From the NCBI GenBank assembly GCA_905234755.1, contig CAJOIT010000004.1, forward strand, positions 62,001-126,000: a DNA stretch of 64,000 nucleotides. Direction: 5' to 3'. A program made the translations under genes and the position numbers. A model generated the notes under the pieces. The model made no database searches. It was given only the letters and a program-made list of their open reading frames with translations, and was not told the origin of the DNA. Shown piece by piece: positions 2,357-40,493 of the stretch. Positions within the stretch are counted from its first letter, which is position 1, and every line of letters starts with the position of its first letter. Source of the stretch: an uncultured Bacteroidales bacterium (GTDB lineage Bacteria; Bacteroidota; Bacteroidia; Bacteroidales; ML635J-15).

Positions 2357-2905
2357 ATGGCAAAACTAAAAGAAATAGCAGATATTCGTTCTGGAATTTT
2401 CCTAAACTCCTCTCCTACAGGCACAATATCGTACCTGCAGATGAAAGACATCATGATGGATTCCCCAGAAAAAATTTCAGCAATGGTAGAATACAAGCCA
2501 AGAATGGAGAGCAACATGCTCCGTAGAGGAGACCTGCTCTTTGCTGGAAAAGGCACAACATACCTTTGCAAGATATTCAACCTTGGCATAAAAGCGGTAG
2601 CTTCGACTACACTATATACAATAAGACTGCACAGCGATTCAATTTCTTCCGAATATCTATGCTGGTACTTGAACCTGCCGAACATCGTAAACGAAATAAA
2701 GGCTTCTCAGATTGGCAGTTCCACCCCACTTATACACAAATCAACCTTGGAAAACATTGAAATTCCAATCCCCGACCATAACACCCAGAAGAAAGTTGTA
2801 GAAATTTCAGAACTGCAGAAACAAGAAGCCCATTTATTAGATGCAATTGCAGAAAAACGCACAAACATAATAAACCAATTATTAATCAACGAAATAAACA
2901 AATAG
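2357..2905 (+). CDS. hsdS: Half-size type I restriction specificity (S) subunit
   Basis: A single target-recognition-domain protein of 182 residues. The pattern is typical of HsdS: an N-terminal ADIRSGIFL segment, GDLLFAGKG near residue 60, then TLENIEIPIPDHNTQKKVVEI (about residues 132-152) leading into a C-terminal coiled coil with the Q-L-L ending. Full S subunits carry two such halves (about 400 residues), so this is a half subunit that would need to dimerise, or a reservoir of specificity. It starts the operon and stops 5 bp before hsdM. A complete hsdS lies 4 kb downstream (6873-8153) with different recognition domains. Confidence 0.85.
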   Translation: MAKLKEIADIRSGIFLNSSPTGTISYLQMKDIMMDSPEKISAMVEYKPRMESNMLRRGDLLFAGKGTTYLCKIFNLGIKAVASTTLYTIRLHSDSISSEYLCWYLNLPNIVNEIKASQIGSSTPLIHKSTLENIEIPIPDHNTQKKVVEISELQKQEAHLLDAIAEKRTNIINQLLINEINK

Positions 2906-2910
2906 ACAAT

Positions 2911-4440
2911 ATGGATACAAAGAAAATCACCCAAGAGGACATCAACCGCACGGTTTGGAAGGCTTGCGACACTTTCCGCGGCGTAATCGACCCCAGCCAA
3001 TACAAGGACTACATACTTACAATGCTGTTCCTTAAGTATGTAAGCGATGTATATAAATCGAAACTTAACGATTACCTCATAAAATACGAGGGCGACAAGG
3101 AACGCGCCGAGCGAGCAATGCGTCACGAGCGTTTTGTCGTACCGGAAAAAAGTTCGTTCGATTATCTTTACGAACACCGCAACTTAACCAACATTGGCGA
3201 ACTGATTGACGAAGCATTGGCCGACCTCGAGGAAGCCAACCGCGAGAAGATGAGCAGTGAGGACGGCAGCAGCATTTTCCGCAACATCAGCTTTAATAGT
3301 GCCAATTTGGGCGAGACGAAAGAGAAAAACGCACGGTTGAGAAACCTTTTGCAGGATTTTCAGGGTGTTGACTTGGACGAGTCGCATTTGGAGAACAACG
3401 ACATCATCGGCGACGCATACATGTACCTTGTATCAACATTTGCAGGGGAAGCCGGCAAAAAGGCTGGCGACTTCTTCACGCCTGCCGAGGTTTCCACACT
3501 GCTGGCAAAACTTACCAAGAGCAATCCTGGCGCACGAATCTGCGATGTCACCTGCGGTTCAGGTTCATTGCTGATTAAAGCAGGTAAGGAAGTCGGCAAC
3601 AACAACTTCTCGCTGTACGGACAGGAAGTGAACGGCAGCACATGGGCGCTGGCAATGATGAACATGTTCCTGCACGGATTCGACAATGCCGTAATCCGCT
3701 GGGGGGACACTTTGCGCAACCCAAAACTAAAAGCAAGCGACAGGCTTATGAAGTTCGACACCGTTGTTGCAAATCCACCGTTCAGCCTCGACAAATGGGG
3801 TGCCGAAGAAGCCGCCGCCGACCCGTACAACCGCTTCTGGCGTGGCATTCCGCCCAAGAGCAAAGGCGACTGGGCTTTCATAAGCCACATGCTCGAAGTT
3901 GCCGATGACAATGGCGGCAAGGTCGGCGTAATCATACCACACGGCGTACTGTTCCGTGGTGGCAGCGAAGGCAAAATACGCCAGTACATCCTCGAAAACG
4001 AGCACATTCTGGAAGCTGTCATCGGTCTGCCAGCCAACTTGTTCTACGGCACGGGCATTCCGGCAGCCATTGCCATTTTCCGCAAAGGCAGAAGTTCCGA
4101 AAATGTCCTTTTCGTCGATGCCAGCCGCGAGTACGAGAACGGCAAGAACCAGAACAAACTTCGTCCGCAGGACATTGAGCACATTGTGGGCATATACCGC
4201 AAGTTTGCAAACGGCGAACTGCAGCAGGGCGTTGTGGAAGACAAATACGCCTACATTGCCACACCCGACGAAATCCGCGAGAACGACTACAACCTCAACA
4301 TTCCGCGTTATGTGGACACCTACGAGGAAGAAGCCGAAATCAACATCCCTGCTGTACAAAAGGAGATTGAACAGTTGGAAACAGAACTGGCTGATGTGCA
4401 AGGCAAAATGAAGGAATATTTGAAAGAATTAGGATATTAA
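2911..4440 (+). CDS. hsdM: Type I restriction-modification DNA methyltransferase (M) subunit
   Basis: Adenine-N6 DNA methyltransferase that works with HsdS to protect host DNA. In the 509-residue protein an N-terminal helical HsdM_N domain (about 10-150) precedes the catalytic N6_Mtase domain. The SAM-binding motif I is seen as CDVTCGSGSLL (211-221) and the catalytic motif IV as NPPF (288-291). The C-terminus is a helical tail (PAVQKEIEQLETELADVQGKM) as expected for contact with S. All catalytic residues are present. It is 5 bp from the half hsdS and 2 bp from the next gene. Its codon use is GC-richer than the following membrane protein gene. Confidence 0.97.
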   Translation: MDTKKITQEDINRTVWKACDTFRGVIDPSQYKDYILTMLFLKYVSDVYKSKLNDYLIKYEGDKERAERAMRHERFVVPEKSSFDYLYEHRNLTNIGELIDEALADLEEANREKMSSEDGSSIFRNISFNSANLGETKEKNARLRNLLQDFQGVDLDESHLENNDIIGDAYMYLVSTFAGEAGKKAGDFFTPAEVSTLLAKLTKSNPGARICDVTCGSGSLLIKAGKEVGNNNFSLYGQEVNGSTWALAMMNMFLHGFDNAVIRWGDTLRNPKLKASDRLMKFDTVVANPPFSLDKWGAEEAAADPYNRFWRGIPPKSKGDWAFISHMLEVADDNGGKVGVIIPHGVLFRGGSEGKIRQYILENEHILEAVIGLPANLFYGTGIPAAIAIFRKGRSSENVLFVDASREYENGKNQNKLRPQDIEHIVGIYRKFANGELQQGVVEDKYAYIATPDEIRENDYNLNIPRYVDTYEEEAEINIPAVQKEIEQLETELADVQGKMKEYLKELGY

Positions 4441-4442
4441 AT

Positions 4443-5441
4443 ATGCAAGATTTATTAAATCATATTATAATCGATTATAGTTTTGGAACAGCAATAACTC
4501 ATATAATAGCGGCTATTTTACTTTTTTTCATTATTAATAGAATAGGTTCCCATTCTATTTCTGCCGGCTATATGCAACTATCTATAATTGCAAAAGAAGA
4601 GAATGCCCTAGCTTTTAATTTTCTATACAAAACAATATCACCAATTGTTTTTCTTGTACTTTTTATTGCAACTGTTCAAAGTATAGGCTGTCCGGAATTA
4701 ACTCAAAATAGTTATCTAATAGTTATATATTATTGGATTATTAGAACAATAATAATTATAGTATGGGAACGCAGAATACTAACAAACTGGACACGCCACA
4801 TTGTATATATGATTATTTCCATCTCTATATCAATCTGGGTTTACTCTCTTTCTGAAGAAATGGAAAAGATTCTACCAGACCCGAGAGAATTGCTAGACCA
4901 ATTGTGGATTCTGATAATTATATTTATTTATAGCGTTATTAATAAACTTGAGAGATCATATGAATCAAAACTAAAAAAAGAACACAATTACATTAATTAT
5001 CAGTACAAAAAATTCAAAGCTGAATATGGAGATCTAATTTCTGAGAAATGTTCTAATGAGTTTTATGAGGCTGCTACTTATTCTATTATGATATATGAAA
5101 ATTTCAATCGTCCGCCTTTTGTTAGATTGATAGAATATCTACATTTCTATATTACAAAAAAGCCTCACACATTAGGCATCATGCAAGTTCATACTGATAA
5201 ATATATAAACAATGAAACATCTATTATCAATGCCATTAAAATAATAACAGAGGCAACATTAAAGTACAAACACAATAAAAAAGATTCCAGTTGTAAAGAC
5301 GAACCAGAATACGCAATTTATAACATTGCTGGCATTTACAATTGCAATAATTATGAGTACCAAAATGAGATACAAAACATTTTTATAAACATAAAAAGAA
5401 ACTATAATAATATTGACGAAAATTATAACGAAATAAAATGA
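4443..5441 (+). CDS. Five-TM protein with possible transglycosylase/lysozyme-like C-terminal domain
   Basis: Not a recognised family. The 332-residue product has five hydrophobic segments (about 16-34, 64-82, 91-109, 119-136, 153-167) and a charged C-terminal domain. That domain holds IYENFNRPPFVRLIE (217-231, with E219, R228, E231) followed by TLGIMQV (243-249). A Glu upstream of a GIMQ/GLMQ element is reminiscent of glycan-cleaving transglycosylase folds, but this is only a motif resemblance. The gene is markedly AT-rich next to hsdM and fic. It starts 2 bp after hsdM and its stop overlaps the fic start (ATGA), so it is translated as part of the operon. It could be a defence effector carried by the R-M locus. 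Confidence 0.8.
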   Translation: MQDLLNHIIIDYSFGTAITHIIAAILLFFIINRIGSHSISAGYMQLSIIAKEENALAFNFLYKTISPIVFLVLFIATVQSIGCPELTQNSYLIVIYYWIIRTIIIIVWERRILTNWTRHIVYMIISISISIWVYSLSEEMEKILPDPRELLDQLWILIIIFIYSVINKLERSYESKLKKEHNYINYQYKKFKAEYGDLISEKCSNEFYEAATYSIMIYENFNRPPFVRLIEYLHFYITKKPHTLGIMQVHTDKYINNETSIINAIKIITEATLKYKHNKKDSSCKDEPEYAIYNIAGIYNCNNYEYQNEIQNIFINIKRNYNNIDENYNEIK

Positions 5442-6511
5442 ACAAGATAGCAACATTATACAAGGAATGGCTGGCAACTCAACCCGTGAAAGAAGAATTG
5501 CAACGGCGGCTCGACCAGAAATTTATGCTGGAATTCAACTATAATTCCAATCATATCGAGGGCAACACTCTGACCTACGGACAGACGGAATTGCTACTTC
5601 TTTTCGGACGAGTGGTTGGCGAGGCAAAAATGAAGGATCTGGAAGAAATGAAGGCTCACAATGTCTGCCTGAAAATGATTATCGAGGAAGCGAAGGAAAA
5701 AGACAAGCCGCTGACAGAATACTTCATTCGCACTCTTCACCAGACTATGCTTCGCGAGGACTACACCGTATATCGCCAGCTTCCCGGAGGAGAAACCACA
5801 AGTTATGTAGTCCACGCAGGCTGTTACAAGACCCGTCCCAACTCTGTAATCACACCGACAGGAGAACGCTTCGAATACGCTTCGCCGGAGGAAACGCCAG
5901 CATTGATGACTGACCTTGTAAACTGGTACAATCGTTCGACAAATGAAAACAAATTTTCACCAGTTGAACTGGCTGCGATATTCCATTACCGCTACATCCG
6001 CATTCACCCGTTCGAAGATGGCAACGGACGCATCGCCCGACTGCTGATGAACTTCATTTTGCTGCGTTATGGCTACCCGATGATTGTCATCCGCAGCAAG
6101 AACAAGAAAGCCTATCTGGAAGCACTTGGGAAAGCAGACAAAATAGTAGGACCAATCCCGTCCGATGGTGCCCACGCCACCTTGGAGCAAGCCAAAGATT
6201 TCATCGCATACATCACCAGACAGGTGGAACAAACTTTGGAAGATGACATGAATTTCCTGCAAGAAAAAGAAGACGCAGTTTGGTGGTTAAATGGCGAGTT
6301 TGTGAAGATTAAGAATGAAACGACGATTGAAATATTAAAAGAACTGATGAAGAACGCCAAAGTTTCCATAGTGCAATTATCTAAACTTTTAGGTATTAGT
6401 GAAAACGCTGTGTTGAAACAACTAAATGGTTTAAAAGCAAAAGGATACATTCAACGTAATGGAGGTGCGAAAGGTGGTTCTTGGCAAGTTCTATTGGTTC
6501 CTACAACTTAA
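5438..6511 (+). CDS. Fic-domain protein with N-terminal inhibitory motif and winged helix
   Basis: Probable AMP-transferase (AMPylator) with a DNA-binding tail. The Fic core motif HPFEDGNGR is complete (190-198), including the catalytic His and the Asn/Arg that bind ATP phosphates. The self-inhibition helix motif (S/T)xxxE(G/N) is seen as SNHIEG (37-42), which puts it in the class with an N-terminal inhibitory helix. Residues about 296-350 form a winged helix (KVSIVQLSKLLGISENAVLKQ). Fic-wHTH proteins are common next to type I R-M genes in Bacteroidota, where they may regulate or poison cells. The start overlaps the previous stop by 4 bp. Confidence 0.93.
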   Translation: MNKIATLYKEWLATQPVKEELQRRLDQKFMLEFNYNSNHIEGNTLTYGQTELLLLFGRVVGEAKMKDLEEMKAHNVCLKMIIEEAKEKDKPLTEYFIRTLHQTMLREDYTVYRQLPGGETTSYVVHAGCYKTRPNSVITPTGERFEYASPEETPALMTDLVNWYNRSTNENKFSPVELAAIFHYRYIRIHPFEDGNGRIARLLMNFILLRYGYPMIVIRSKNKKAYLEALGKADKIVGPIPSDGAHATLEQAKDFIAYITRQVEQTLEDDMNFLQEKEDAVWWLNGEFVKIKNETTIEILKELMKNAKVSIVQLSKLLGISENAVLKQLNGLKAKGYIQRNGGAKGGSWQVLLVPTT

Positions 6512-6872
6512 TATTATGGAAAAAGTTTTTGTTGAGTGAAATTTTCACCCAACTAAATATGGTTGGGTAAAAATTTTTAGTTGGGTAAAAAGTAGAGTTG
6601 TATCTACCTCCCCCAAAAGTGGTAAATAAAAAATATGGTGAAAAATGAAACTATATGACGCACATCACCCCACCCAAAACGGTTGGGTAAAAAATATTGG
6701 TTGGGTAAAAACCGTACTACCAATTTAGGTGGTACACAAAATAAATAGTGGTACACTTTTTCTCAACCCCAAAAGGCTATGAATAAAAATTTAGTTATGA
6801 AAAACATTATCTACCACCCCAAAAGGTGGTAGATAAAAAACAAGTGGTAGATAAAACAAAACGACAAGCAAA
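6512..6872 (+). repeat. Intergenic array of six degenerate three-arm repeat units
   Basis: This 361-bp gap inside the restriction operon holds no gene but six related units of about 45-60 bp. The right arms begin near 6561, 6619, 6681, 6728, 6777 and 6825. Four units (1, 3, 4, 6) have a left arm, a reverse-complement right arm 6-10 nt later, an A-rich spacer, then a second copy of the right arm. Unit 6 has CTACCACC (6811), GGTGGTAG (6825) and GTGGTAG (6844). Unit 4 has GTACTACC (6714), GGTGGTAC (6728) and GTGGTAC (6748). Units 1 and 3 use ACCCAA/TTGGGT/TTGGGT. Units 2 and 5 are decayed. An extra hairpin, GTTGAGTGA with TTCACCCAAC, lies at 6531-6553. Confidence 0.75.
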
Positions 6873-8153
6873 ATGACGAACACTAACCAACATATCCGCA
6901 CCGGCTACAAGCCCTCGCCCCTCGGTCCTATTCCCGAAGACTGGGAAGTGAAGAGGCTGGGAGAATGTACAAATCTACTTACTAACGGTTTTGTTGGAGT
7001 TGCAACTCCACATTACACAGAGGACTCGGATGGAATAACTTACATTCAAGGTTATAATGTGACAGAAGGGGGCTTCAACTTAAGAGGAATAAAAAAGGTA
7101 ACAAAGGAATTCCACAAGAAGAATAGTAAATCTTCTTTACTTGAAGGCGATCTGCTCACAATTCAAACTGGTGATATTGGTCTTACTACAATTGTACCCA
7201 AAGATCTAGAAGGAAGCAATTGTCATGCACTAATAATCTCCCGCTTTAATAATAGTATTATTCCACGATTTATGCTTTATTACTATAATTCTTCTATTGG
7301 GCGTGAAAGATTCCGCAAAATAGAAACAGGAACTACAATGAAGCATATCAATACAGGAGATTTGATTAATTTTCTTGTCCCAGTACCCTCAATCGAGGAG
7401 CAGAAAGCTATCGTTGACCTATTGAAACTTTGGGACACCGCCATATCCAAGCAGACCGCCCTTATAGAGAAACTCACCCAGCGCAAGCACGGCCTCATGC
7501 AGCAACTGCTCACAGGAAAGAAACGGCTGAAAGGGTTTGAGGGGGAATGGAAAGATGTGAGGTTGGGAGATACTGGTAGCGCATATGGTGGTTTGATTAA
7601 TAAAAACAAAGAAGATTTTGAAAACGGCAACGCTTTGTTTATCACATATATGAATGTTTTTTCAAATGGGAAAATAGACATTGACGACCTAGGTCAAGTT
7701 CGAATTCTGCCTTCTGAAAAGCAAGAGCAAGTACAATATGGAGATATTTTCTTTACAGTTTCTTCTGAAACCCCTGATGAAGTGGGTATGGCTTCAGTAC
7801 TACTAAATGAAGTTCAAAATACGTATTTGAATAGTTTTTGCTTTGGATATAGATTGAATGATTTTAAAACCATAGTTCCTTTGTATGCATCATATCTTTT
7901 CCGTGGTGATGATTTCAGAAAGGAAATGTACAAAATTGCTCAAGGGTCTACAAGGTTCAATATCTCAAAAACAGAAGTTTTGAATATGAGAATTATAATT
8001 CCATCAATCGAAGAACAAAACGCCATAGCTTCAGTTTTAATCAATGCCGACAAAGAAATCGAAATCGCCAAAGGGAAATTATTGCATCTGCAAGAAGAAA
8101 AGAGAGGATTGATGCAGGTGCTGTTGACAGGGAAGAAACGGATTAAAGAATAA
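6873..8153 (+). CDS. hsdS: Full-size type I restriction specificity (S) subunit
   Basis: DNA-recognition subunit of the HsdRMS complex. The 426 residues hold two tandem target-recognition halves. Each half ends in a conserved coiled coil: SIEEQKAIVDLLKLWD...LMQQLLTGKKRLKGF (about 172-218) and SIEEQNAIASVL...LMQVLLTGKKRIKE (about 380-426). The N-terminus (GYKPSPLGPIPEDWEVKRLGE) is typical of the family. Recognition halves are AT-rich while the conserved helices use GC-richer codons, which is the usual sign of domain exchange. Together with hsdM and hsdR it would make a complete system, with the half-size hsdS at 2357 as an alternative partner. Confidence 0.96.
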   Translation: MTNTNQHIRTGYKPSPLGPIPEDWEVKRLGECTNLLTNGFVGVATPHYTEDSDGITYIQGYNVTEGGFNLRGIKKVTKEFHKKNSKSSLLEGDLLTIQTGDIGLTTIVPKDLEGSNCHALIISRFNNSIIPRFMLYYYNSSIGRERFRKIETGTTMKHINTGDLINFLVPVPSIEEQKAIVDLLKLWDTAISKQTALIEKLTQRKHGLMQQLLTGKKRLKGFEGEWKDVRLGDTGSAYGGLINKNKEDFENGNALFITYMNVFSNGKIDIDDLGQVRILPSEKQEQVQYGDIFFTVSSETPDEVGMASVLLNEVQNTYLNSFCFGYRLNDFKTIVPLYASYLFRGDDFRKEMYKIAQGSTRFNISKTEVLNMRIIIPSIEEQNAIASVLINADKEIEIAKGKLLHLQEEKRGLMQVLLTGKKRIKE

Positions 8154-8158
8154 ATAAA

Positions 8159-8614
8159 ATGAAAGTTTTAGGAATTAGAAATTACAGTGAAGGCTTCAGG
8201 TATTGTATACTTGATAATAGTGGAGGAAAAGTGAAATGTTTAAACTTAGATAGTGAAAATAAAATCACTTTGCCAAAAGGACAAGATGACAATCAATTAC
8301 TCACTTGGTATCAGGATGAAATTGATAGAATCTTAGATTCAAACGAAGACATAGAACGTGTGGCTATAAAGCATAACGAAAACATGCGTGATTGTTATTC
8401 AAAGTTAAAAAAAGTTATGTTTATGGATTGTATTAGCACTCTTGAAGCGCTAAGGAAGAATTTACCTGTTAATTCATACGTGTATAACAATCTGCGTATT
8501 AATTCTAAAAACGTATTAGATAAAGCGGAGGCTATCGTAGGTAAATCGCAAAAGTATTGGGATGCCAAATTCGCTGACGCAATAATGGCTGCTAACAAAG
8601 AATTTGAAATATGA
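8159..8614 (+). CDS. Small protein, possible RNase-H-fold pseudo-nuclease (DUF3010-like)
   Basis: A 151-residue protein of unknown function. The layout MKVLGIRNYSEGFRYCILD (strand 1-2), then ERVAIKHNENM after a helix, then AKFADAIMAAN near the C-terminus is like the RNase H/RuvC fold and resembles the DUF3010 family. The acidic residues expected after strand 1 and strand 4 are replaced (GIRN, AIKHN), so a nuclease reading would be an inactive one. It begins 5 bp after hsdS and its stop overlaps the kinase start by 4 bp (ATGA), so the two are probably made together. AT-rich codon use suggests recent acquisition. The fold assignment is inference. Confidence 0.8.
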   Translation: MKVLGIRNYSEGFRYCILDNSGGKVKCLNLDSENKITLPKGQDDNQLLTWYQDEIDRILDSNEDIERVAIKHNENMRDCYSKLKKVMFMDCISTLEALRKNLPVNSYVYNNLRINSKNVLDKAEAIVGKSQKYWDAKFADAIMAANKEFEI

Positions 8615-9681
8615 TGACATTTAAAGAAAAGGATCAAATATACAAGTTTGAACTTGAAAAAAGATTAGGAAATGGCAGTTTTGGCGAGGTGTGGTTGGCC
8701 AAGGACACAACCATTGACAAAGAAGTTGCCTTAAAAATATTGCCTTCTGATTTTAGAAATGTTGCACAAAAATTAGAAGAAGCAAAAAACGGAAAAAAGG
8801 TTAGCCACAAGAATCTTCTTGAAATCTTTTATGCAGATGTAGCAAGTACATCTGACGGAAATATAGTAACCCTAATTGCACAAGAATACCAGAAAAATGG
8901 AACGGTGGAAAGTTGCTTAAACGCTCACAATTTTTTGCCGTTACCAAAATTATTAAAAATCCTTACAGACGTGTTGCTTGGGTTAGAATATCTTCACAAT
9001 GGTGGTGTCATTCATAATGATATAAAACCGAGTAATATTTTGTTGGATAACAATGGGAATGGTGTACTTGCAGACTATGGCATTTCAAGTTTTTCTGCAG
9101 GTCTCAACCCTGTTCAGCCCAAAAGTGTATACAGAATACACGGAGCACCCGAAACAATTAGTGGAGCGAAAGAAATAAGTGCGTTGACGGATATTTATCA
9201 ATTCGGCTGTACTGCATATAGATTAGCAAATGGCATCGGCGAGATAAAAAGTGACTTTTCAAAAGACCCAGTAAATTTTAATGAAGCCAAATTAAAAGGA
9301 AAGATCCCATCAAAAAAACATCAACCATATGTCCCTAAGAAACTTGCTGCAATTATTAACAAAGCTATAGAAGTTTGTCCTGAGAAAAGATATACTTCTG
9401 CTATAGATATGAAGCATGCTATAGAAAAACTATATTTTCCCGGTTATTGGACAACCAATCCAGAAAACACATCTGAATTGATTGGCTATGGAAAAAACTA
9501 TTCATATACTTATGAGATAATCCCCAAAGCAAACAATATGTTTGATTTCTCTGCCTATCAAAAAAGTAAAGAAGGACGTACTACAAGAAAAGTAGATTTC
9601 TGCAAAAAGAATCTTCCTTTAAAAGACAAAGATAAATTATTGAAAGATTATTTCGCGTGGGTGATTAATAATGCAAAATAA
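8611..9681 (+). CDS. Hanks-type serine/threonine protein kinase
   Basis: A 356-residue soluble kinase without any transmembrane segment. The visible motifs are the glycine loop GNGSFGEV (20-27), the ATP lysine in VALKIL (K42), the catalytic loop HNDIKPSN (135-142, HND where most have HRD), the metal-binding DYG (155-157, for DFG) and the GAPE activation-segment end (178-181). D137, K139, N142 and D155 are all present, so it should be active. The loss of the HRD Arg marks a non-RD kinase. A C-terminal domain of about 80 residues (about 275-356) matches nothing I recognise. The gene overlaps the upstream small gene and lies inside the R-M operon, so a defence or regulatory role is likely but unproven. 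Confidence 0.93.
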   Translation: MMTFKEKDQIYKFELEKRLGNGSFGEVWLAKDTTIDKEVALKILPSDFRNVAQKLEEAKNGKKVSHKNLLEIFYADVASTSDGNIVTLIAQEYQKNGTVESCLNAHNFLPLPKLLKILTDVLLGLEYLHNGGVIHNDIKPSNILLDNNGNGVLADYGISSFSAGLNPVQPKSVYRIHGAPETISGAKEISALTDIYQFGCTAYRLANGIGEIKSDFSKDPVNFNEAKLKGKIPSKKHQPYVPKKLAAIINKAIEVCPEKRYTSAIDMKHAIEKLYFPGYWTTNPENTSELIGYGKNYSYTYEIIPKANNMFDFSAYQKSKEGRTTRKVDFCKKNLPLKDKDKLLKDYFAWVINNAK

Positions 9682-9693
9682 AATGCCATCATT

Positions 9694-10086
9694 ATGATAA
9701 CAAAACCCGAACTACAAGAATTACTGCAAAGCACCGAGACCTATCGTGTGGAGCGCACCACATCCACTAATGTCCCCCAAGATGTCCCTCAAGATGTCCC
9801 CCAAGATGTCCCTCAAGGTGATACCCAAGATGATACTCAAGGTGATACCCAAGATGATACTCAAGATGATACTCAAGGTGATACTCAAGATGATACCCAA
9901 GATGATACTCTTGACGTTTGGATTGAAGACAAAATAAGGGAAAACTCCAAAATAACGACTGAAGAATTGGCTAAACTGAGCAATAAAGGTGTGGCTACTA
10001 TCAAACGCCATCTTGCAAAACTTCCCCATATCAAATATGTTGGCAGTGGATATAGCGGTCATTGGGAAATAACTGATAATAAATAA
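9694..10086 (+). CDS. Winged-helix protein with tetrapeptide repeats, apparent internal deletion of an AlbA_2-type protein
   Basis: The 130-residue product has three parts. Residues 1-26 (ELLQSTETYRVERTTSTN region) look like the very start of an AlbA_2 (ATP-binding, RecG-like) domain. Residues 26-73 are tetrapeptide repeats (DVPQ, GDTQ, DDTQ). Residues 74-126 are a winged helix with KITTEELAKLSNKGVATIKRHL, ending in a typical SGHWEI wing. The rest of the AlbA_2 domain is missing, as if about 300-400 residues were deleted in frame. It may still bind DNA and regulate the operon. It starts 12 bp after the kinase and ends 4 bp before hsdR. Confidence 0.85.
   Translation: MITKPELQELLQSTETYRVERTTSTNVPQDVPQDVPQDVPQGDTQDDTQGDTQDDTQDDTQGDTQDDTQDDTLDVWIEDKIRENSKITTEELAKLSNKGVATIKRHLAKLPHIKYVGSGYSGHWEITDNK
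9769..9912 (+). repeat. Twelve 12-bp in-frame tandem repeats
   Basis: Twelve consecutive 12-bp units of the forms GATGTCCCTCAA and GATGATACTCAA (with GGTGATACCCAA variants) run without interruption inside the winged-helix gene. The period is a multiple of three, so gain or loss of units changes linker length but not the reading frame. That argues for length variation rather than on/off phase variation. Confidence 0.95.
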
Positions 10087-10090
10087 TCAC

Positions 10091-13000
10091 ATGAATAGAA
10101 TCTCATTCAAAGAAAACGATATAAGCCAAAAGCCCGCATTGGAACTTTTACAAAAACTTGGCTACCAATACATCTCGCCCGACGAGGCACTTGAACTGCG
10201 CGGCGGAAAGAATTCCTCCGTGCTGCTCGATGATATTTTACGCCAGCAACTGCGTAACCTCAACTCTATCCACATCGGCAGCCACAGCGAGGCACGCTTC
10301 TCGGAACAGAACATCGAAAACGGCATTGCTGCAATGCGCAATGTGCCAATGGAAGGCGGATACATCAGCGCAAACGAAACGGTATATAACATGCTCACAC
10401 TCGGCAAGGCATTCGAGCAAAGCATCGACGGCGACAAGAAGAGCTACACAATGCGCTACATCGACTGGAACAACCTGCAGAACAATGTCTTTCATGTCAC
10501 CGAGGAGTTTGCCGTCACACGCACAGGCCTCACCGACACCTACCGACCCGACATTGTGCTGTTTGTGAACGGCATACCTCTGGTCGTAATCGAGTGCAAG
10601 CGCCCCGACATCAAAGGCGCCGAGGAACAGGCAATATCGCAGCACCTGCGCAACCAAAAGGAAGACGGCATCCGAAACCTATATGTATATAGCGCACTGC
10701 TTCTGGCAATAGGCAATAGTTTCGGCAGTTACGCCACTACTGGTTCTGCTGCGCAATTCTGGTGCAAATGGCACGAAATGTTTAACAACAAGGAGGCAGA
10801 ACAGGAATACCAGCAGAAATTACACGACCTTATTGGCAACAGAGGAACAACCGAGCAGGACGAATATATCTACAACCTATGCCGTCCCGAACGGCTTCTG
10901 GAACTGATTTTCCATTTCACAATCTACGATGCCGGCATAAAGAAACTGGCCCGCTATCAGCAGTATTTCACCGTCAACGAAACAGCGAAACGGGTAAAGA
11001 CAATCGAAGCAGGGCGACGCAACGGCGGTGTGGTTTGGCATACGCAAGGAAGCGGCAAATCGCTGACTATGGTTATGTTGGCACAAAAAATCGCGCAAGA
11101 CCAAAGCATCCGCAATCCGCGCATAGTACTGGTCACCGACCGCACCGACCTCGACGAACAGATTACCAAAACATTCCGCAAATGTGGCAAGGAAGTTGAG
11201 AACGCAACTACTGGCAAAAAACTTGTCGAACTGCTTGAAAGCAACACCGATGCGGTCATTACAACCATCATCAACAAATTTGCCACAGCCATCAGGAATA
11301 TCAAGCAGCCCCTCACCGACCCCAACATTTTCATCCTTATCGACGAGGCGCACCGCAGCCAGTACAAGGAACTTGCAATACAGATGAACCGCGTACTGCC
11401 CAATGCCTGCAAAATCGCATTCACCGGTACACCATTGATGAAAAAGGACAAGAACACAGCACGCACCTTCGGCGGAATTATCAAGCCTGTTTACACGGTA
11501 AGGCAAGCCGTTGAGGACAAAGCCGTTGTACCATTGCTATACGAAGGGCGTATGGTGCCGCAGTCGGTAAGCGAAGGCCCGATAGACAGTTTCTTCGACC
11601 GCGTTTGCGAAGACCTCACCCCCGACCAATCCACCGACTTGAAAAAGAAATTCTCGCGTACCGACATTCTCAACCAAACGGAGCAACGCATATATTCCAT
11701 CGCCCTCGACATTTCAAAGCACTTTGCCGACAACTGGCAGGGAACCAAGTTCAAGGCAATGCTGGTTACGCCAAAGAAAAAGGTTGCCATTCTTTACAAG
11801 AAATATCTCGATGAAATCGGCAAAATAACTTCCGAAGTGCTCATTACCGCCCCCGACAACCGCGAAGGCGAAGAAATTGCATACGGAGGCACTGCGCAGG
11901 AAGTAAAGGACTTCTGGAAGCGTATGATGGACGAGCACGGCACACCGCAAAAGTATCAGGAAAACCTGATTTCTCGCTTCAAGAAACAAGAAGCGCCAGA
12001 GGTGATGATTGTTGTTGACAAACTTCTCACAGGCTTCGACGAGCCAAAAGTAACTATTATGTATCTAGACCGCAACCTTAAAGGACATACATTGCTACAG
12101 GCTGTTGCACGAGTAAACCGTACCTGCGAAGGCAAAGACTTTGGATATATAATTGATTACTACGGCGTACTATCCGAACTGGATAATGCATTAAGCATAT
12201 ATTCCGACTACGACGAAGAAGATAAAAAGGTATTCTATGATACACTGATGCCTGTGAGCGACAAGATTGCCGAACTGCCACAAAGACATTCCGACTTATG
12301 GGATATGTTCAAGGAAATCCCAAACAAACGCGACCTTGAAGCCTATGCACAGTCACTCCGTATGGAAGACCGCCGCCACGAGTTCTACGACCGTCTGACC
12401 GCATTTTCGTCAGTGATGCAGATAGCACTTTCGACAGAAGAATTTTTCAAAAATACCGACGAGAAAACAATCAGACTGTATAAGGACGACTTGAATATGT
12501 TTGCCAAACTTCGTACCTCTGTACAACTGCGCTACTCCGACACTGTGGACTACAAGAAATACGAAGCCCGCATCGAAAAACTAATAAATCACCATGTGGA
12601 AAGCGACGCCGTAAAGGTCATTACAAACCTTGTAAACATTTTCGACAAGGAAGATTTCCAGAAGGAAGTTGACAACATTGTGGGCACAGCAGCAAAAGCC
12701 GACACAATAGCAACGCGTACAGCCAAATACATACGCGAAAATATGGACTCAGACCCTGCATTCTACAAAAAATTCTCGCAACTTATCAAAGAAGCTATCG
12801 AAGCATACGAGCAGGGACGCATAAACGACAACGAATACCTTGAAAAGATAATGCAGTACAAGGAGGACGTTCTCAACCACACCGACAGCGAACTGCCTTC
12901 CGAACTGGAGCACAACAACGCGGCAAAAGCATATTTCGGCATCGCCTTGGAAAACTACAAGCGACTCTTTCCCGATATGCCTGTACGCGAAATGGCTTTG

Positions 13001-13228
13001 GCAACCACTCACGCCTTCGACGACATCATCCGCCAGACAGTAATTGTGGACGGCTCGGTCCTAGTCGATTGGCAGTCGAAAAACGACACAATTGGCAAAA
13101 TGAAAATACGCCTCGAAGACGAACTTATCGACAACATAAAGCGCAAATACGGACTTGTGTTCTCGTTTGACGATATGGACATAATTATTAACGGCTGCGT
13201 AGAAGTGGCAAAAATATGGATTCGATGA
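10091..13228 (+). CDS. hsdR: Type I restriction endonuclease (R) subunit
   Basis: Motor and nuclease subunit that translocates unmodified DNA and cuts it. The 1045-residue protein is a normal length. The PD-(D/E)XK nuclease site is seen as RPDIVLF (D154) with VVIECK (E168, K170). The SF2 helicase motifs follow: Walker A TQGSGKS (318-324) and Walker B DEAH (418-421), then TGTPL and a second RecA-like domain with VDKLLTGFDEP and QAVARVNRT. The C-terminal helical domain is complete. All catalytic residues are present, so the nuclease should be functional. The 3-prime end overlaps the next gene by 13 bp. Confidence 0.97.
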   Translation: MNRISFKENDISQKPALELLQKLGYQYISPDEALELRGGKNSSVLLDDILRQQLRNLNSIHIGSHSEARFSEQNIENGIAAMRNVPMEGGYISANETVYNMLTLGKAFEQSIDGDKKSYTMRYIDWNNLQNNVFHVTEEFAVTRTGLTDTYRPDIVLFVNGIPLVVIECKRPDIKGAEEQAISQHLRNQKEDGIRNLYVYSALLLAIGNSFGSYATTGSAAQFWCKWHEMFNNKEAEQEYQQKLHDLIGNRGTTEQDEYIYNLCRPERLLELIFHFTIYDAGIKKLARYQQYFTVNETAKRVKTIEAGRRNGGVVWHTQGSGKSLTMVMLAQKIAQDQSIRNPRIVLVTDRTDLDEQITKTFRKCGKEVENATTGKKLVELLESNTDAVITTIINKFATAIRNIKQPLTDPNIFILIDEAHRSQYKELAIQMNRVLPNACKIAFTGTPLMKKDKNTARTFGGIIKPVYTVRQAVEDKAVVPLLYEGRMVPQSVSEGPIDSFFDRVCEDLTPDQSTDLKKKFSRTDILNQTEQRIYSIALDISKHFADNWQGTKFKAMLVTPKKKVAILYKKYLDEIGKITSEVLITAPDNREGEEIAYGGTAQEVKDFWKRMMDEHGTPQKYQENLISRFKKQEAPEVMIVVDKLLTGFDEPKVTIMYLDRNLKGHTLLQAVARVNRTCEGKDFGYIIDYYGVLSELDNALSIYSDYDEEDKKVFYDTLMPVSDKIAELPQRHSDLWDMFKEIPNKRDLEAYAQSLRMEDRRHEFYDRLTAFSSVMQIALSTEEFFKNTDEKTIRLYKDDLNMFAKLRTSVQLRYSDTVDYKKYEARIEKLINHHVESDAVKVITNLVNIFDKEDFQKEVDNIVGTAAKADTIATRTAKYIRENMDSDPAFYKKFSQLIKEAIEAYEQGRINDNEYLEKIMQYKEDVLNHTDSELPSELEHNNAAKAYFGIALENYKRLFPDMPVREMALATTHAFDDIIRQTVIVDGSVLVDWQSKNDTIGKMKIRLEDELIDNIKRKYGLVFSFDDMDIIINGCVEVAKIWIR

Positions 13229-39215: not shown

Positions 39216-40493
39216 TTATCTTATAATATCAAATGTTTCCTTATCAAATTGTGGTATAGCAATACAATTGCCATTCTTATCTAATATTCCTACCTTATCC
39301 CCCATAAGCACATAAAAAACATGCAAATTCCGATTATCAGACCATTGATGGTCTAAATATATGATAGAATCATATACGGGATTTATAACAAATTTCCCTA
39401 ATTCGTCAATGTATCCACATTTGCCATTAACAGAAACCCACGCCAATCCATTTTCATAGAAATATCCATCCAAATTAACATAATCAAACTGTGGTTCAAT
39501 AACAATTTTTCCTTTCCTGTCTATATATCCCCACTTTCCATTTACTTCAATTGCAGCTAAACCATTTTCTGCAAAATAACCTATATAATCGAACTGTGGA
39601 CTAATAACAAATTTACCAGTTTTGTCTATACTCCCCATCTTTCCATTTATTATAACTTCTGCCAACCCATCTGCACCAAATCCATTGGTATTATCAAACT
39701 GCGGACTGATTATGATTTTTCCTGACCTATCAACAAATCCCCACTTGCCGTTTACTTCTATTTCTTTTAATCCGATTTCATCGTATGATGTTTCTTTTTC
39801 ACCCTGAGGTTCACCGACAAATCTTCCAGCCTTGTCTATATACTCCTCCTTACCATTTATTTTAACACGAGCAAATCCGTTTTCATCAAAGCTACTTGCA
39901 TCATCAAACTGTGGACTAATAGCAATTTTTCCTGTCATGTTTATATATCCCCATTTCCTATTTATTTCTACTGCTGCCAGCCCATTTTTGGCAAAATAAT
40001 CCGCATAATCCAATTGAGGGCTAACAATCATTTTCCCTGTTCTGTCTATATAACCCCATTTTCTATCTATCCTAACTGCAGCTAAACCATTTTCAAAACT
40101 CATTGCCATATCAAACTGTGGGCTAATAACAATTTTTTTTGTCTTGTCTATATAACCCCATTTATTGTTCACAATAACAAGTGACAAGCCATCTTCTTCT
40201 AGGGCATGCCCGTTTTCATCATTATGACTTACATAATCGTATTGAGGGTCAACGACTAACTTCCCCGTCTGGTCTATATATCCATATTTGCCATTTATTC
40301 TAACACGAGCCAATCCAAATTCATAAAAATCAACGCTTTCATACTTAGGTTCCACAACAAACTGACCCGACTTATCAACAAAACCCCATTTACCATTAAG
40401 ACATACAGGGAACAAATTGGTTCCATCACCATCTGCCAAGACAGAAATACAAGAAAGCAAGATAACGCCAATAATCAATACTATTCTTTTCAT
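39216..40493 (-). CDS. Secreted WG-repeat protein
   Basis: The 425-residue protein has a signal peptide (MKRIVLIIGVILLSCISVLA) and then eleven WG (KWG) repeats of about 35-45 residues. Each repeat has the form NGKWGYIDKTGKIVISPQFD followed by a spacer with ENGLAAVxI. The sixth, eighth, tenth and eleventh are diverged (GKEEYID, GKMGSID, GKCGYID, DKVGILD). WG repeats are thought to form a beta-rich binding surface, and the function is unknown. It converges on uvrC with a 9-bp gap. Confidence 0.93.
   Translation of the reverse strand: MKRIVLIIGVILLSCISVLADGDGTNLFPVCLNGKWGFVDKSGQFVVEPKYESVDFYEFGLARVRINGKYGYIDQTGKLVVDPQYDYVSHNDENGHALEEDGLSLVIVNNKWGYIDKTKKIVISPQFDMAMSFENGLAAVRIDRKWGYIDRTGKMIVSPQLDYADYFAKNGLAAVEINRKWGYINMTGKIAISPQFDDASSFDENGFARVKINGKEEYIDKAGRFVGEPQGEKETSYDEIGLKEIEVNGKWGFVDRSGKIIISPQFDNTNGFGADGLAEVIINGKMGSIDKTGKFVISPQFDYIGYFAENGLAAIEVNGKWGYIDRKGKIVIEPQFDYVNLDGYFYENGLAWVSVNGKCGYIDELGKFVINPVYDSIIYLDHQWSDNRNLHVFYVLMGDKVGILDKNGNCIAIPQFDKETFDIIR

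What the first reader, a model, noticed from the sequence alone, without database searches (positions are those of the whole stretch)
6512..6872. Six tandem three-arm units with concerted arm changes between fic and hsdS
Seen: four of the six units have left arm A-prime, right arm A, an A-rich spacer and a second A. Arms differ between units (ACCCAA/TTGGGT/TTGGGT; GTACTACC/GGTGGTAC/GTGGTAC; CTACCACC/GGTGGTAG/GTGGTAG) but match within a unit, so three positions have changed together. Units 2 and 5 look like decayed versions. Such triple covariation is unexpected for random repeats. Inference: the left arm could pair with either of two right arms, as in an alternating RNA structure, or the array could be made by a copying process. 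It lies inside an R-M operon between a Fic-wHTH gene and hsdS. It could also be decayed peptide-coding repeats (units 1 and 3 translate to related GWVK peptides).
Basis: partly seen in the sequence, partly recalled or inferred. Interest (0 to 1): 0.75.

Follow-up and report, generated by a model that had tools for sequence, protein, structure and literature searches.

The report
Operator array for an AMPylase repressor
Between two genes of a bacterial restriction system lie six tandem copies of a three-part DNA motif that also sits in front of related Fic (AMPylase) genes, so the array is likely a stack of landing sites for the Fic protein encoded next to it, which would let that protein control the restriction genes downstream.

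Summary
In detail: six tandem three-arm units (7 exact 6-mer three-arm hits, 0.06 expected), all on one lattice. They are best read as DNA operators, not RNA switches or peptide repeats. The same half-sites (GTGGTA, GTTGTA, GTGGCT and others) form dyads, at two spacings above all, upstream of related Fic-winged-helix genes (exact pairs in 37 of 73, 2.6 expected), mostly at set distances from the predicted promoter. GGT-type repeated arms occur in 48 of 73 of these, and in 0 of 11 Fic genes with another C-terminus, a control weakened because 5 of the 11 lie inside operons. A recognition-helix residue tracks one operator base (Gln:T 34 of 35, Lys/Arg:C 8 of 8 called), but on the tree this rests on about two switches. 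Units of the window's geometry sit upstream of fic in L043, L046, L090 and G058. Precedent: CccR, a class II Fic-HTH autorepressor. New here: the family-wide operator lattice, and a six-unit array of it inside a type I R-M operon. The effect on hsdS is inferred; no exact promoter box lies in the gap.

The parts
5438..6511 (+). fic: class II Fic AMPylase (HPFEDGNGR at 190-198, inhibitory SNHIEGN at 37-43) with C-terminal winged helix (helices 294-305, 311-318, recognition helix 322-334, wing strands 338-341 and 348-351); specificity-position residue L326
   Evidence: Pfam Fic and HTH_24; motif positions; AlphaFold model; PADLOC SoFic profile 35-341
6548..6585 (+). operator-like unit 1: left CCCAAC, central GTTGGG (6562), second GTTGGG (6580)
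6605..6642 (+). unit 2: left TACCTC, central GTGGTA (6619), third arm decayed (6637)
6668..6705 (+). unit 3: left CCCCAC, central GTTGGG (6682), second GTTGGG (6700)
6715..6753 (+). unit 4: left TACTAC, central GTGGTA (6729), second GTGGTA (6748)
6762..6799 (+). unit 5 (decayed): left CTCAAC, central GCTATG (6776), second GTTATG (6794)
6812..6849 (+). unit 6: left TACCAC, central GTGGTA (6826), second GTGGTA (6844); the unit and its flanks are 84% identical over about 50 nt to the unit upstream of fic in G058
2357..2905 (+). partial (one-domain) HsdS-like specificity protein, first gene of the operon
   Evidence: Pfam Methylase_S
2911..4440 (+). hsdM
   Evidence: Pfam N6_Mtase, HsdM_N; NCBIfam TIGR00497 above its cut-off
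4443..5441 (+). 332-aa ORF of unknown family between hsdM and fic; overlaps the fic start by 4 nt, so fic has no promoter gap of its own
   Evidence: no match in G007's locus, where hsdM and fic are about 17 nt apart (coordinates)
6873..8153 (+). hsdS, begins 23 nt after the last half-site of unit 6
   Evidence: Pfam Methylase_S
8611..9681 (+). protein kinase resembling MADS mad6
10091..13228 (+). hsdR

Best explanation
The six units are likely a tandem array of DNA operators for the winged-helix domain of the Fic AMPylase encoded immediately upstream, and binding there would control transcription from hsdM-fic into hsdS, the kinase and hsdR. Shown by comparison: related Fic-winged-helix genes carry the same half-sites, at the same dyad spacings, in front of the gene; related Fic genes without the winged helix lack them; one recognition-helix residue goes with one operator base; units with the window's geometry (dyad partner 14 nt before the central arm, direct repeat 18/19 nt after) lie upstream of fic in other loci. 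Inferred: the window's own Fic binds its array; several dimers bind cooperatively; the bound array acts as a roadblock or repressing platform for read-through into hsdS/hsdR, as no exact promoter box was found in the gap. By analogy with CccR the Fic protein would be a dimeric repressor, and the three arms would covary because one protein reads the same half-site three times.
For: Exact dyads (arm >=7) in 49 of 75 Fic-wHTH upstreams (window and G007 included) vs 7.7 expected; 2 of 11 vs 1.2 expected for Fic genes with another C-terminus. GGT-type repeated arms in 48 of 73 (5.9% per shuffled upstream) vs 0 of 11. Exact 6+6 pairs starting GT exceed 3 loci only at convergent spacing 10 (30 loci) and divergent spacing 14 (14 loci) among spacings 7-19; 37 of 73 loci vs 2.6 expected for any letters at these two spacings. 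Background in the rest of the Fic-wHTH loci of L043-L097: 12 hits in 454 kb, against 18 of 42 fic upstreams; in the 64-kb window the only two exact hits are units 1 and 6. Position: of 44 called pairs, 41 have an exact TANNTTTG; by nearest box 23 lie downstream (16 start 19 nt after its first base), 17 upstream (10 end 18 nt before it, 13 end 17-20 nt before it), 1 overlaps (sub-counts made from its listing). Code: residue 326 Gln with T in 34 of 35 called, Lys/Arg with C in 8 of 8 called; residue 326 lies in the predicted recognition helix. Same three-arm geometry upstream of fic in L043, L046, L090 and G058, whose readable Fic part is 71% identical. The window's wHTH is nearest to L090 and L046 (46%, 44%) among the 8 wHTH loci other than G007 compared. 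Four syntenic R-M operons (L071, L086, L087, L093; HsdM 79-94%) have a Fic with a different C-terminal domain and no units before hsdS. Precedent: CccR, class II Fic + HTH, autorepressor on inverted repeats (PMC9755527, passages read).
Against: The window's own fic has no operator or promoter gap in front of it; its array is downstream. Residue 326 is Leu here, seen in none of the 73 compared loci outside the window and G007, so what it reads cannot be predicted; the GTTGGG direct pair of units 1 and 3 has no counterpart in other fetched loci (12 of 288 loci match, all from G000 or G007). Arms differ between units although one protein should prefer one site. No exact TANNTTTG in the gap. The control of 11 Fic genes without wHTH is confounded: at least 5 (L071, L086, L087, L093, L140) lie behind hsdM inside an operon and need no promoter of their own, and 1 of 11 (L093) has an exact pair at these spacings with unrelated letters. 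The 73 loci are not independent (only identical proteins were removed). On a Fic-domain tree the Gln/Lys-Arg and T/C labels need only 2 changes each and starred branches force only 1, so the code is not phylogenetically significant; clustering at 70% wHTH identity gives p=0.0027, at 50-60% the classes merge. Pairs were called in only 44 of 73 loci. G058's contig ends inside fic, so its winged helix is unseen. The array was found in 2 of 26 genus genomes and, by BLAST at E<=1e-4, in no further one of 393 order genomes, where G058 alone matched unit 6.
Confidence: 0.65

Rival explanations
1. The array is an evolutionary relic: operator units were duplicated or left behind when neighbouring genes were exchanged by recombination, and no longer regulate anything here.
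For: Units 2 and 5 are decayed; the window's Fic has an unusual Leu326; no exact promoter box in the gap; G000 and G007 share a block covering fic and the array (96% over window 5431-6952) while hsdS beyond it is replaced (40% protein identity).
Against: Four units keep both partners of the lattice nearly intact, u1 and u6 perfectly; none of the 5 G000/G007 differences hits a 6-mer half-site, though with 5 changes this is weak.
Confidence: 0.21
2. An RNA element: the left arm pairs with either of two right arms in a leader or attenuator of hsdS.
For: The gap folds better than shuffles as RNA (z -3.86); two terminator-like sites were scanned in 6400-6900, one on each strand, vs 0.4 expected.
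Against: A good fold follows from any DNA dyads. In 17 of 41 homologous upstreams the dyad lies upstream of the nearest exact -7 box and would not be transcribed; for a few (L044, L090) the nearest box may be a chance one, but 13 of 17 lie at a steady 17-20 nt. The motif tracks the wHTH domain and a recognition-helix residue. Unit 2 lacks the third arm and unit 5 the hairpin. No Rfam family reached its gathering score in the window.
Confidence: 0.06
3. The units are sites of some other protein that merely co-occurs with Fic genes (for example a mobile-element protein), so Fic does not read them.
For: No binding experiment here; L288 (G058) lies next to mobile-element-like sequence by eye.
Against: Presence follows the wHTH domain rather than the Fic domain (48 of 73 vs 0 of 11, with the confound named above); position of an autoregulatory site; recognition-helix correlation; CccR precedent.
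Confidence: 0.06
4. Decayed peptide-coding repeats (GWVK-like).
For: Units 1 and 3 read GWVK-like peptides in one frame (sequence).
Against: Unit 6 does not share the frame (read by eye); homologous units lie upstream of fic; no + strand ORF of 40 aa or more lies in the array (one search lists only a 50-aa minus-strand ORF there).
Confidence: 0.02

Closest known systems
CccR of Yersinia pseudotuberculosis (class II Fic + C-terminal HTH, autorepressor; PMC9755527, passages read)
   Same: Same domain order and inhibitory class; a Fic protein that binds inverted repeats on its own promoter through its HTH.
   Different: CccR's 10-bp repeats are 26 bp apart in one operator; here half-sites sit on a 10/14/18-19-nt lattice, in six tandem units, downstream of fic and in front of hsdS of an R-M operon. 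Binding is not shown here.
RptR operators of type I R-M/DarTG islands (PMC12255303, passages read)
   Same: A local repressor acting on repeated short operators in a type I R-M island; the authors' model needs at least two sites.
   Different: RptR is a small helical dimer reading TAGCTA-like 6-bp palindromes in the promoter at the head of the island; here the candidate reader is a Fic-wHTH protein and the array is internal, before hsdS.
C (controller) proteins of type II R-M systems and their tandem C-boxes (recalled; papers seen only in the listing)
   Same: A regulator encoded in an R-M operon binding repeated operators to time restriction.
   Different: C proteins are small lambda-repressor-like HTH proteins of type II systems; this is a Fic-wHTH protein in a type I operon.
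SoFic / EcSofic anti-phage Fic proteins (PMC12249575, passages read; PADLOC SoFic profile)
   Same: Fic proteins of similar length linked to phage defence; the PADLOC SoFic profile matches the window's Fic over residues 35-341.
   Different: In the passages read, EcSofic is controlled by a small antitoxin, AS1; no genomic operator is described there.

Membership tests
Class II Fic AMPylases with C-terminal winged helix | Fic motif HPFxxGNGR (recalled) | tested here: met
   HPFEDGNGR at residue 190; Pfam Fic 78.5 bits
Class II Fic AMPylases with C-terminal winged helix | N-terminal inhibitory [S/T]xxxE[G/N] (recalled; CccR's SARIEG) | tested here: met
   SNHIEGN at residue 37
Class II Fic AMPylases with C-terminal winged helix | C-terminal winged helix | tested here: met
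   HTH_24 39.3 bits; model helices 294-305, 311-318, 322-334 and wing strands
Fic-HTH autorepressor/operator pairs (CccR type) | Inverted-repeat operator on the protein's own promoter | tested here: not met
   Found in relatives (37 of 73 exact pairs) but not for the window's fic, which overlaps the preceding ORF and has no dyad upstream; its units lie downstream
Fic-HTH autorepressor/operator pairs (CccR type) | Specific binding and repression by the Fic protein | not testable with these tools
   Needs EMSA/footprint and reporters
Bacteroidales Fic-wHTH operator lattice (described here) | Half-sites GTNNNN at convergent 10 or divergent 14 spacing | tested here: met
   Divergent 14 exact in units 1 and 6, one mismatch in 2, 3 and 4, three in 5
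Bacteroidales Fic-wHTH operator lattice (described here) | Linked to a TANNTTTG promoter box | tested here: not met
   No exact TANNTTTG in the gap on either strand; four one-mismatch sites on the + strand
Tandem or alternating RNA leader elements | Element is transcribed in homologous positions | tested here: not met
   17 of 41 homologous dyads lie upstream of the nearest exact -7 box; no Rfam match at gathering score
Type I R-M operon | hsdM, hsdS and hsdR in one run of genes | tested here: met
   syntenic operons

The most novel reading that the evidence does not exclude
A two-address regulatory array: the alternating units carry two different half-site codes (GTTGGG and GTGGTA) read by two different Fic AMPylase-repressors, the local Leu326 protein and a Gln326-type paralogue of the kind that the same genome also encodes (contig C10, own GTGGTA operator), so that the state of two AMPylases jointly gates expression of a type I restriction enzyme; more widely, Fic-wHTH proteins across Bacteroidales would be sequence-diversified regulators with a readable protein-DNA code (Gln to T, Lys/Arg to C).
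Probability: 0.17. Interest if true: 0.75.

Novelty: new variant of a known kind. Interest (0 to 1): 0.58.

Why it matters
For CccR the operator of a Fic-HTH protein is known. In the nine paper searches run here (listings and starts of abstracts seen, not every hit listed in 60, 61 and 85) I saw no title or abstract describing operators of Bacteroidales Fic-wHTH proteins or Fic control of a restriction-modification operon; one listed paper that names hsdS, hsdM and a Fic family (PMC11062135, a Mycoplasma genome) was not opened. The lattice and the residue-326/base correspondence give a cheap, testable code for predicting the targets of dozens of these proteins from sequence. If the array works as proposed, it couples a toxin-like AMPylase to expression of a restriction enzyme, a regulatory link that can be tested directly.

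Tried and rejected
RNA alternation: considered first; the gap folds well but homologous dyads are often upstream of the promoter box; no Rfam match. Peptide repeats: rejected from frames and homologous positions. Chimerism of fic (R-M-type N-terminus joined to a foreign wHTH): not supported, since the Fic domain is about equally close (64-73%) to wHTH and non-wHTH relatives; only the C-terminal domain differs. Other copies of the array: only G007 in the genus, family and order samples; plasmids and phages none; viral contigs gave only distant Fic relatives (best 80 of 87 kept, up to 58% over short segments), not studied further. Two weak genus hits in G018 (L010, L012) look like AT-rich chance matches by eye. 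A nearer relative of the window's wHTH was sought in order and class samples; apart from G007 no listed match exceeded 46% identity. Other wHTH genes: 15 loci from the search were tried, 14 gave an ORF over the middle of the locus, and none of these ORFs had an exact GT pair at these spacings in the 150 nt upstream; the choice of ORF was mechanical. First scan with 8-mers and loose spacings gave many chance hits; I kept those near fic. The alignment was useless (strand error of mine) and replaced. One search's looser pairing rule (47 of 73, shuffle rate 22%) was replaced. Loci L061 and L069 (Lys at 326) show GGTGGCT-like dyads by eye but were not called by the rule and are not counted; L067 (Lys) shows none of that kind.

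Full report
What is there. The 361-nt gap between the fic stop (6511) and the hsdS start (6873) is filled by six tandem units. Each has a central half-site, a reverse-complement partner starting 14 nt before it, and a direct copy starting 18 nt after it (19 in unit 4). Exact three-arm 6-mer hits number 7 (overlapping k-mers counted apart) against 0.06 expected, and 0 of 1000 shuffles reach this. Units 1, 3, 4 and 6 are intact or have one left-arm mismatch; unit 2 has lost its third arm and unit 5 its left arm. Odd and even units alternate in letters (GTTGGG / GTGGTA, with unit 5 diverged), so the array looks like three copies of a two-unit composite.

Setting. The operon runs: partial HsdS, hsdM, a 332-aa ORF without a family, fic, [array], hsdS, a 151-aa ORF, a MADS-mad6-like kinase, a 130-aa protein, hsdR, ygjP. 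The Fic protein has an intact HPFEDGNGR motif, a class II inhibitory motif, and a C-terminal winged helix whose recognition helix is residues 322-334 in the model (mean pLDDT 78, blocks over 291-357 from 70 to 95). Its start overlaps the preceding ORF, so it has no promoter gap of its own.

The same motif elsewhere. Scans for relatives of the Fic protein and extraction of 99 distinct homologues gave 73 winged-helix-type Fic genes outside the window and G007, and 11 whose C-terminus is another domain. Only identical proteins were removed, so the loci are not independent. The window's arms reappear upstream of the winged-helix type: GTGGTA, GTTGTA, GTGGCT, GTTACA and variants. Dyads with arm >=7 occur in 49 of 75 (window and G007 included) vs 7.7 expected; in the other type in 2 of 11 vs 1.2 expected. 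Exact 6+6 pairs, whatever their letters, occur at convergent spacing 10 or divergent spacing 14 in 37 of 73 vs 2.6 expected; of spacings 7-19 with arms starting GT, only these two exceed 3 loci, with 30 and 14. In the other type 1 of 11 has such a pair (L093), with unrelated letters, and 0 of 11 has repeated GGT-type arms against 48 of 73. This control is weakened because at least 5 of the 11 (L071, L086, L087, L093, L140) lie behind hsdM in an operon. In the rest of the Fic-wHTH loci of L043-L097 the background is 12 hits in 454 kb against 18 of 42 fic upstreams, and in the 64-kb window the only exact hits are units 1 and 6.

Position. Of 44 loci with a called dyad, 3 lack an exact TANNTTTG in 150 nt. 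In the other 41, by nearest box, the dyad lies downstream in 23 (16 start 19 nt after the first base of the box), upstream in 17 (10 end 18 nt before it, 13 end 17-20 nt before it) and overlaps in 1 (sub-counts made by me from its listing; for L044 and L090 the nearest box may be a chance one). These are two ordinary places of a repressor operator, and the upstream class would not act as RNA.

Window-type units. The divergent-14 / direct-18-or-19 arrangement of the window is found upstream of fic in L043, L046 and L090 and in G058, where it lies just before TAACTTTG and is 84% identical over about 50 nt to unit 6; the alignment is. G058's contig ends inside fic, so its C-terminus is unseen. 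L151 shows the direct pair at 18 nt with a poor left arm (by eye). L046 and L090 have the winged helices nearest to the window's among the 8 compared (44% and 46%). L046 and L090 also carry a mirror-image unit downstream of fic (L046; L090 by eye).

Which domain it tracks. In syntenic R-M operons (L071, L086, L087, L093; HsdM 79-94% identical) the Fic domain is 64-73% identical but the C-terminal domain is not a winged helix, and the gap before hsdS has no units. The two nearest hsdM operons outside the genus (L131, L133) gave no fic match. Thus the motif goes with the winged helix rather than with the Fic domain or the R-M genes.

Recognition code. At residue 326, inside the recognition helix, Gln goes with T at half-site position 5 (34 of 35 called; one A) and Lys or Arg with C (8 of 8 called); one Asp locus has T; 29 of 73 loci were not called. 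This is the expected chemistry for Gln-adenine and Lys/Arg-guanine contacts on the other strand (recalled). The caution is phylogeny: on a Fic-domain tree each trait needs only two changes, and starred branches force only one, so independent support is thin. The window and G007 have Leu there, which predicts nothing.

How it likely works. CccR shows that a class II Fic-HTH protein can be a dimeric autorepressor on inverted repeats. I infer that the window's Fic binds the array, probably as several dimers, and represses or blocks read-through from hsdM-fic into hsdS, kinase and hsdR, so that Fic state sets restriction. No exact Bacteroidetes -7 box (consensus recalled) lies in the gap, which favours a roadblock or platform over a classical operator-promoter pair, or else a relic. 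RptR is a published case of a local repressor with repeated sites on a type I R-M island; the authors' model needs at least two sites.

Conservation. G000 and G007 share a block over fic and the array (96% over 5431-6952), with 5 changes in 361 nt of the gap and 2 in fic codons 240-357, while the hsdS that follows is replaced (40% protein identity). The five changes miss all 6-mer half-sites, but five are too few to show selection.

Verdict.

Noticed in passing
window 9694-10086 (repeat 9776-9908): 130-aa protein just before hsdR with 11 copies of a 12-bp repeat (VPQD/DTQ/GDTQ units) leading into a winged-helix-like C-terminus (by eye); in L087 the same protein is matched in two pieces about 1.1 kb apart.
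   Followed up: partly
window 4443-5441: 332-aa ORF without any Pfam, PADLOC or NCBIfam match sits between hsdM and fic here; G007 has about 17 nt between hsdM and fic.
   Followed up: partly
window 8611-9681: Protein kinase in the type I R-M operon resembles MADS mad6 (PADLOC 2.8e-44), but NCBIfam MADS6 is below its cut-off; with the mad5-like partial HsdS this may be a MADS-like R-M variant.
   Followed up: no
L071, L079, L083, L086, L087, L092, L093, L095, L140: Fic proteins of R-M operons and others share the Fic domain but end in an uncharacterised domain of roughly 180 aa instead of a winged helix; the C-terminal module at this locus looks swappable.
   Followed up: partly
L037 (G000 contig C10, 42568-46620): The window's own genome has a second Fic-wHTH gene (Gln326 type) with a clean GTGGTA three-arm operator just downstream of its predicted promoter.
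   Followed up: partly
L044, L046, L056, L090, L160: Operator-like dyads also lie directly downstream of the fic stop codon in some loci (by eye), as in the window.
   Followed up: partly
L053 5990-6038 and 7469-7506: A different three-arm tandem motif (CGGGAGGTT/AACCTCCCG) occurs twice about 1.5 kb apart.
   Followed up: no
window 39899-40163: 105-bp tandem repeat, 2.6 copies, 73% matches.
   Followed up: no
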